Assembly (NCBI GenBank): GCA_944383185.1
Contig: CALWOS010000155.1
Coordinates: 1-32,888 of the forward strand
Source: an uncultured Oscillospiraceae bacterium
Lineage (GTDB): Bacteria > Bacillota > Clostridia > Oscillospirales > Oscillospiraceae
Direction: 5' to 3'
DNA: 32,888 nucleotides
The position numbers were made by a program, and so were the translations under genes. The notes beneath the pieces were generated by a model that saw only the letters and a list, made by a program, of their open reading frames with translations, had not been told where the DNA came from and did no database searches. Below are positions 29,387 through 30,052 of the stretch, one piece after another (position 1 is the first letter of the stretch; each line of letters opens with the position of its first letter).

Positions 29387-29415
29387 TTGACATATTTCTT
29401 TAAGTTTGATATCCT
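29387..29415 (+). promoter_or_regulatory. Sigma-A promoter of the S10 ribosomal operon
   Basis: TTGACA (29387-29392), 17 bp, TATCCT (29410-29415). The transcript should start near 29422, exactly at the first leader stem, giving a leader of about 313 nt before rpsJ. A second palindrome, ATTTCT-GAG-AGAAAT, lies at 29360-29374. Confidence 0.75.
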
Positions 29416-29421
29416 ACAAAA

Positions 29422-29734
29422 GCGCCTGTGAAAAGGATTATAGGCGCACTATGCGATGAAGCGGGAGATTGCTCGCACCCCAAGCGAGGTAACTTCCGTG
29501 GAGTATGTCCGTTGCCGGGCCGCGTGCCCGGCAAGCAATCGGGCGGCTGAGATTTTTCTGAGGGGACGAGAATTGGGTATATCGTCCGAGCGGAAAGAAA
29601 CCGGCCAGATTTGAGCCGGTTTGTTTTTCGGGCGGAGTCTGATACGCACGGCCCAGTGTTCAGAAAAAATCTCATCCGTACGACCCCCGCGGACCCAATG
29701 CCGCGGAGCAAGTACAATTAGGAGGAAAGAAAAA
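29422..29734 (+). promoter_or_regulatory. Structured 5' leader of the S10 operon
   Basis: Stems visible by eye: GCGCCT/AGGCGC (29422-29427, 29442-29447), CTCGC/GCGAG (29472-29476, 29484-29488), a 9-bp TTGCCGGGC hairpin (29512-29534), GGACGA/TCGTCC (29564-29569, 29582-29587), the attenuator hairpin 29598-29622, and CCGCGG/CCGCGG (29687-29692, 29701-29706). A 13-bp long-range match joins 29549-29561 to 29660-29673. Loops 29572-29578 (ATTGGGT) and 29693-29699 (ACCCAAT) are exact complements. The region looks like an r-protein autoregulatory leader; the ligand is not identifiable. Confidence 0.6.
29598..29628 (+). terminator. Attenuator-type intrinsic terminator inside the S10 leader
   Basis: AAACCGGC (29598-29605) pairs with GCCGGTTT (29615-29622), followed by GTTTTTC. 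It lies 107 nt before rpsJ, so termination here would switch off the whole ribosomal operon. An upstream GCCGG (29514-29518) could compete for the CCGGC strand. Confidence 0.65.
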
Positions 29735-30052
29735 ATGGCAGCACCCAGCAAGAAAATGATCCGCATCCGGCTCAAGGCCTATGACCACCAGCTCATCGAC
29801 AAGGCCGCCGAGACCATTGTGGAGACCGCCAAGCGCACTGACGCCAAGGTCTCCGGCCCCATCCCCCTGCCCACCAAGAAGGAAATCGTCACCATCCTGC
29901 GGGCCGTCCACAAGTATAAGGACAGCCGGGAGCAGTTCGAGCGCCGGACCCACAAGCGCCTGATCGACATCATGAGCCCCACCCAGAAGACGGTGGAGGG
30001 CCTGATGGCTCTGGAGTTGCCCGCCGGCGTGGAGATCGAGATCAAGCTCTGA
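29735..30052 (+). CDS. rpsJ: 30S ribosomal protein S10
   Basis: A 105-aa ribosomal protein and NusE transcription factor. [34 protein letters not shown] and the [10 protein letters not shown] segment are diagnostic. GGAGG at 29721-29725 is 9 nt before the ATG. The frame extends 38 codons upstream into the leader, but those are not S10-like. First gene of the S10 operon. Confidence 0.98.

What the first reader, a model, noticed from the sequence alone, without database searches (positions are those of the whole stretch)
29549..29706. S10 operon leader: predicted kissing loops, long-range helix and attenuator
Seen directly: hairpin 29564-29587 exposes ATTGGGT in its loop, and hairpin 29687-29706 exposes the exact complement ACCCAAT in its loop. 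Between them lies a classical U-tailed terminator (29598-29628), and a 13-bp match (29549-29561 with 29660-29673) would bring the two hairpins together. The second hairpin is 14 nt before the rpsJ ribosome site. This could couple transcription attenuation and translation initiation of a whole ribosomal operon through an RNA tertiary contact. I cannot identify a matching described r-protein leader by eye.
Basis: partly seen in the sequence, partly recalled or inferred. Interest (0 to 1): 0.75.

Follow-up and report, generated by a model that had tools for sequence, protein, structure and literature searches.

The report
Extended S10 operon leader with attenuator
[quoted passage not shown] the proposed loop-to-loop contact is found only in this genome.

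Summary
All the elements described are in the sequence. The flagged 29549-29706 belongs to a conserved 3' half of that leader that no Rfam family covers. A covariance model of 29537-29682 finds one copy in 93 of 100 genomes of the same family. In 98 genomes of the order it finds 19 copies, each next to an RF03136 match.

The long-range helix, a second inner helix, hairpin 1, the terminator and a helix next to the ribosome site are all supported by covariation or strand-swap tests. The kissing loops are not: loop 2 (CCAAUG, on a covarying stem) recurs in 36 sequences, the window included, but only this genome has the complementary loop 1.

Best reading: an autoregulatory r-protein leader combining an intrinsic attenuator with control near the ribosome site. 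It works like the E. coli L4/S10 leader; homology was not shown. Ligand (L4 most likely) and switching are inferred. A short ACRC[A/C]CGG-N4-GUGY hairpin, kept when a relative's leader lost everything else, is the best candidate protein site.

The parts
29387..29415 (+). promoter-like site TTGACA-17-TATCCT of the rpsJ transcript; start expected near 29422
   Evidence: 10 of 12 consensus letters; TTGACA-type sites at the same place are visible in relatives
29422..29447 (+). 5' hairpin GCGCCU..AGGCGC
   Evidence: minimum-energy fold of 29422-29628
29448..29534 (+). S10-Clostridia ribosomal leader, 5' domain (RF03136)
   Evidence: 42.1 bits against gathering score 35.1
29537..29682 (+). conserved 3' domain not covered by Rfam (model R1)
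   Evidence: 107.8 bits, E 9e-23 in the window (window sequence is in the seed); 93 of 100 family genomes, one copy each
29548..29561 (+). long-range helix, 5' strand (P_out, here merged with P_mid)
   Evidence: outer 5 pairs 94.5% standard in 100 sequences, each with changes on both sides; own energy -18.2 against -13.0 for swapped strands
29660..29674 (+). long-range helix, 3' strand
   Evidence: as for the 5' strand; 15.8 pairs own against 13.1 (sd 0.2) swapped
29564..29587 (+). hairpin 1 with conserved GUAUAUCG in its loop and 3' arm; alternative partner of the strand that also takes part in the long-range arm
   Evidence: own -9.27 against -7.89 (sd 0.17) kcal/mol for swapped arms; forms in the fold of the terminated transcript
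29598..29628 (+). intrinsic terminator (attenuator): near-invariant CCGGC/GCCGG stem and U tract
   Evidence: 98.3% standard pairs, 5 of 6 pairs with changes on both sides; median 6 U in the 8 nt after the stem in 100 sequences
29640..29659 (+). near-invariant UGAUACGCACGG plus GUGU; ACGCACGG-N4-GUGU hairpin, candidate protein site
   Evidence: conserved columns; variants in 48 of 61 other RF03136-type leaders; retained alone in a natural deletion
29676..29682 (+). CCGUACG: can pair with ACGG at 29648-29651 (pseudoknot) or with GUAC before the ribosome site
   Evidence: pseudoknot pair predicted by RNAalifold but nearly invariant, no compensatory changes; ribosome-site-side helix own -9.75 against -7.70 (sd 0.15) swapped in relatives; only 4 pairs in the window
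29687..29706 (+). hairpin 2 with CCCAAUG loop
   Evidence: CCAAUG loop on strongly covarying stems in 36 sequences
29712..29725 (+). GUAC partner strand and AGGAGG ribosome site of rpsJ
   Evidence: GTAC before the ribosome site in 69% of relatives against 9% in shuffles
29735..30052 (+). rpsJ (S10), followed by rplC, rplD, rplW, rplB
   Evidence: ORFs; orthologues with 73-95% identity in relatives

Best explanation
An extended S10-Clostridia r-protein leader of about 313 nt. Shown by sequence comparison: the known 5' domain is followed by a conserved 3' domain. In that domain one strand can pair locally (hairpin 1) or with strands beyond the terminator (long-range arm), and a terminator with a near-invariant stem sits between them. 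A conserved ACGCACGG-N4-GUGU element and a CCGUACG strand follow, and the latter can pair next to the ribosome site. Inferred: while RNA polymerase is near the U tract only hairpin 1 and the terminator exist, so a bound r-protein of the operon (most likely L4) favours termination near 29628. In read-through RNA the strands refold into the long arm, and choice of partner for CCGUACG tunes rpsJ translation. Excess r-protein thereby lowers both transcription and translation of the operon.
For: RF03136 hit. One model copy in 93 of 100 family genomes; positions compared with rpsJ coordinates lie just upstream on the same strand. In the order, all 19 R1 hits adjoin RF03136 hits. Covariation 0.281 against 0.160 shuffled and at most 0.097 when slid. 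Swap tests for long-range, inner, hairpin 1 and ribosome-site helices. U tract after the stem. The E. coli S10 leader is controlled by L4 at both termination and translation (PMC10931766), and prediction of a ligand by prior cases is the accepted heuristic (PMC7247131).
Against: No expression, term-seq or binding data. No sequence mimicry of 23S found for the ligand guess. No conserved antiterminator excluding the terminator was found, and strands beyond the terminator cannot act on it before it is transcribed. The pseudoknot pairing is invariant, hence untested. One RNA polymerase-independent alternative, pure translational control, is not excluded.
Confidence: 0.75

Rival explanations
1. One reading: hairpin 1 and hairpin 2 kiss through ATTGGGT/ACCCAAT, brought together by the long-range helix.
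For: Exact 7-nt complement of two loops in the window.
Against: Only the window of 36 sequences with loop 2 has the complement; own equals swapped complementarity over 139 leaders. Loop 1 overlaps the conserved GCGUAUAUCG, which in relatives pairs with AUACGC. No genus-mate is held, so a contact private to this genus cannot be excluded.
Confidence: 0.05
2. Control is purely translational or by RNA stability; the terminator-like hairpin is only a structural cap of the long arm and does not terminate.
For: The stem sequence CCGG is almost invariant, unusual for a terminator; the arm encloses the hairpin; no antiterminator is visible.
Against: U-rich tract in nearly all sequences: 90 of 100 have 5 or more U in 8 nt, against a mean of 1.9 U for random 8-mers of the same element. 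A terminator between the aptamer and the gene is the usual layout of attenuated leaders.
Confidence: 0.2
3. The ligand is another r-protein of the operon (S10, L3, L23, L2) or two different proteins bind the 5' and 3' domains.
For: The 3' hairpin motif survives without the 5' domain, so the two domains are separable.
Against: L4 is the only protein of this operon named as its regulator in the review read (PMC10931766).
Confidence: 0.35

Closest known systems
RF03136 S10-Clostridia ribosomal protein leader (S10 r-leader of Firmicutes; Eckert and Weinberg 2020, PMC7247131)
   Same: The 5' domain 29448-29534 is a member: hit above gathering score, upstream of rpsJ, in Clostridia.
   Different: The 81-position family ends before the flagged stretch; long-range arm, attenuator, conserved ACGCACGG element and ribosome-site helix are not in it.
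E. coli S10 leader regulated by L4 (PMC10931766; PMC10578931)
   Same: Same operon; hairpin followed by an intrinsic attenuator, plus translational control in one leader, is the layout proposed here.
   Different: Not shown to be homologous; the E. coli-type uL4 site is reported as restricted to some gamma-proteobacteria (PMC10931766). RF03136 was not found among the well-known control genomes except B. subtilis and L. lactis. L4 binding is untested here.
rpsJ motif RLC-47-1 of Peptostreptococcaceae (PMC11109978)
   Same: Candidate ribosomal leader upstream of rpsJ in Clostridia.
   Different: Reported only from three genera of another family; its consensus is in a figure that is not held, so overlap with the 3' domain could not be compared.

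Membership tests
RF03136 S10-Clostridia leader | covariance-model score above the curated gathering score | tested here: met
   42.1 bits against 35.1 at 29448-29534; covers the 5' domain only
RF03136 S10-Clostridia leader | located in the 5' UTR of rpsJ | tested here: met
   promoter 29387-29415, rpsJ at 29735
RF03136 S10-Clostridia leader | 3' domain 29537-29682 is part of the described family | tested here: not met
   no Rfam match over this stretch at E up to 1 in the window nor at gathering score in 20 related loci
Intrinsic-terminator attenuator | GC-rich stem followed by a U tract, conserved as a structure | tested here: met
   98.3% of cells paired, 5 of 6 pairs with double changes; median 6 U of 8
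Intrinsic-terminator attenuator | conditional termination in vivo | not testable with these tools
   needs term-seq or in vitro transcription
E. coli-type L4-controlled S10 leader | L4 binding and L4-dependent termination and translational repression | not testable with these tools
   no binding data
E. coli-type L4-controlled S10 leader | mimicry of the L4 site in 23S rRNA | tested here: inconclusive
   no exact match of the conserved motifs to 23S of relatives and no convincing equivalent hairpin; three-dimensional mimicry not tested
Kissing-loop regulated leader | complementary loops conserved with compensating changes | tested here: not met
   own 4.35 against swapped 4.45 nt; window alone has the complement

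The most novel reading that the evidence does not exclude
The 3' domain is a second, independent protein-binding module: an ACRC[A/C]CGG-N4-GUGY hairpin that is the true recognition site of the S10-leader regulator across Clostridia. In Paenibacillaceae the same motif sits in the apical loop of the 5' hairpin, i.e. the site has moved within the leader during evolution. It switches partners to control both the attenuator and the ribosome site.
Probability: 0.25. Interest if true: 0.65.

Novelty: new variant of a known kind. Interest (0 to 1): 0.45.

Why it matters
The S10 operon encodes about a dozen ribosomal proteins. In Clostridia its leader is known only as an 81-position consensus of unproven ligand. 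A conserved 3' half with covarying alternative helices, an attenuator and a retained minimal hairpin gives concrete, testable sites for ligand binding and regulation, and would extend Rfam RF03136 about threefold.

Tried and rejected
Kissing loops as a conserved contact: rejected. Sequence mimicry of 23S rRNA (a domain I idea from memory, permuted H18-H20): no exact motif found in 23S of three relatives, and hairpins of similar loop pattern are scattered; left open, not claimed. 16S rRNA was not fetched. A second TGATACGCACGG in the genome (G000:C235) lies in what looks like a GntR-type gene on the other strand, and R1 finds no second copy: chance. The P_mid helix is misaligned by model R1 (49.6% paired) because its spacing varies; it was judged by strand-swap tests instead. 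First sequestor swap script gave useless energies from failed duplexes and was redone. In other Clostridia the long-range helix is clear in some (L028, L030, L031, L086, L100, L101, L213), but over 45 loci the number of pairs does not exceed swapped pairs (13.5 both), only the energy does (-13.4 against -11.7, sd 0.4). The terminator scan tool found nothing because of its loop limit.

Full report
What is there. The window holds the start of an S10 operon: rpsJ at 29735-30052, then rplC, rplD, rplW and rplB. A sigma-70-type promoter, TTGACA-17-TATCCT, lies at 29387-29415, so the leader is about 313 nt.

Rfam RF03136, the S10-Clostridia ribosomal protein leader, matches 29448-29534 at 42.1 bits, above its gathering score. 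Eckert and Weinberg describe it as homologous to the S10 r-leader of Firmicutes (PMC7247131). The flagged stretch begins just after that family ends. No Rfam family matches it in the window at E up to 1, nor in 20 related loci at gathering score.

Relatives. rpsJ was located in 60 relatives and 300 family genomes and in 80 named genome contigs, mostly Oscillospiraceae and other Clostridia; 216 upstream regions were read. In 147 of them (139 distinct) three anchors could be placed: AATCGGGCGG, CGTATATCG and TGATACGCACGG. An alignment of 40 diverse sequences shows near-invariant blocks, and RNAalifold predicts, without being told, the terminator, an inner helix GCGUA/UACGC, a helix beyond it and ACGG/CCGU.

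Covariance model. Model R1 (136 positions) scores 53-118 bits in 100 of 100 chosen leaders; 31 weaker hits in a looser run are mostly the opposite strand of the same places. In unbiased samples it occurs once in 93 of 100 genomes of the family. It occurs in 19 of 98 genomes of the order, always adjoining an RF03136 hit, whereas RF03136 itself is found in 84 of 98. No genome had a second match. R1 is thus specific to this site, strongest in the window's own family, with weaker relatives in a few other families.

Covariation. On the 100-sequence alignment 82.4% of cells pair against 75.3% for shuffled partners and at most 43% when slid. The covariation score is 0.281 against 0.160, with 0 of 500 shuffles reaching it. 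The outer long-range helix, the inner helix next to the terminator and the terminator stem all show changes on both sides. The alignment was fitted to this structure, so I also used tests that do not depend on it: pairing one strand with its own partner or with that of another genome. Own pairs win for the long-range helix (-18.2 against -13.0 kcal/mol, 130 of 139 sequences; 15.8 against 13.1 pairs, sd 0.2). They also win for the inner helix (-9.58 against -6.59), for hairpin 1 (-9.27 against -7.89) and for a helix between CCGUACG and the strand just before the ribosome site (-9.75 against -7.70). Sequences are related, so these are not probabilities, but swapped partners share the same ancestry and conserved letters.

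Alternatives in one strand. Hairpin 1 and the long arm use the same 5' strand, and both are supported; this is the signature of a switch. In the window the terminated transcript (to 29628) folds with hairpin 1 and the terminator, while the complete leader prefers the long arm by 3 kcal/mol. Hairpin 1 and the outer helix can also coexist.

Kissing loops. 36 anchored sequences, the window included, carry a hairpin with a CCAAUG loop between CCGUACG and the ribosome site, on stems such as GGCGG/CCGCC, GGCAG/CUGCC and CACGG/CCGUG. Hairpin 2 is therefore a real conserved element. But only the window has TTGGG in the hairpin 1 region; the relatives have GCGUAUAUCG there. Own loop-region complementarity equals swapped (4.35 against 4.45 nt). 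The window's exact 7-nt match is most likely chance. No genus-mate is held, so a private contact cannot be excluded.

Terminator. The stem CCGGC/GCCGG is 98.3% paired and is followed by a median of 6 U in 8 nt. The near-invariance of CCGG is unusual for a terminator and suggests that something also reads its sequence. No upstream antiterminator conserved across relatives was seen (not searched exhaustively). This resembles the E. coli S10 leader, where L4 acts with NusA on a paused complex rather than through a classical antiterminator (PMC10931766).

Candidate protein site. UGAUACGCACGG-N4-GUGU is the best conserved block of the 3' domain. A related ACRC[A/C]CGG-N-GUG motif occurs in 48 of 61 other leaders that carry the RF03136 core. 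In one genus of the family there is a natural deletion series: genome G198 has a leader of about 80 nt in which only ACACACGGCACAGUGUG remains before the ribosome site, and G008 lacks the GGAGUAUGUCCG part and the terminator but keeps GAUACACACGGCAGAGUGUAUAG. These are draft genomes, so assembly error is possible. In three Paenibacillaceae leaders ACACCCGG lies in the apical loop of the 5' hairpin instead. This points to the CGG hairpin as the recognition element, with the rest as expression platform; that is inference.

Mechanism. Shown: structure, conservation, position. Inferred: ligand, conditional termination, and the exchange of CCGUACG between ACGG (pseudoknot, invariant and so untested) and the strand before the ribosome site (only 4 pairs in this window). 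Strands beyond the terminator cannot influence termination before they are made, so the long arm must act in read-through RNA, i.e. on translation or stability. L4 is the most likely ligand by the prior-case rule (PMC7247131); no 23S mimicry was found.

Verdict. A new variant of a known kind: a known r-protein leader with an uncatalogued conserved 3' half.

Noticed in passing
L151 (genome G198) and L011 (genome G008), upstream of rpsJ: Two genomes of one genus have lost the attenuator and part or all of the RF03136 domain but keep the ACACACGG-N4-GUGU hairpin.
   Followed up: partly
L108, L110, L111 upstream of rpsJ: Paenibacillaceae leaders carry ACACACCCGGCCCCTTTGCCAT in the apical loop of the 5' hairpin, the motif that Clostridia have downstream of the attenuator.
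   Followed up: partly
L062-L099, just before the rpsJ ribosome site: Many Ruminococcaceae-type leaders have CGCCCGCC before the ribosome site, complementary to CGGGCG of the RF03136 domain and partly to GGAGGCG; a different lineage-specific platform seems likely.
   Followed up: no
L063, L064 upstream of rpsJ: An additional AGGAGG lies directly before ACGCCCGGCGGTGTG, about 25 nt upstream of the real ribosome site.
   Followed up: no
L005, RF03136 domain: The apical loop of the 5' domain hairpin is enlarged by an insert of roughly 100 nt.
   Followed up: no
window 29693-29700 and relatives: The CCAAUG loop of hairpin 2 is conserved on changing stems in 36 sequences with no complement in the leader of most; its role is unexplained.
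   Followed up: partly
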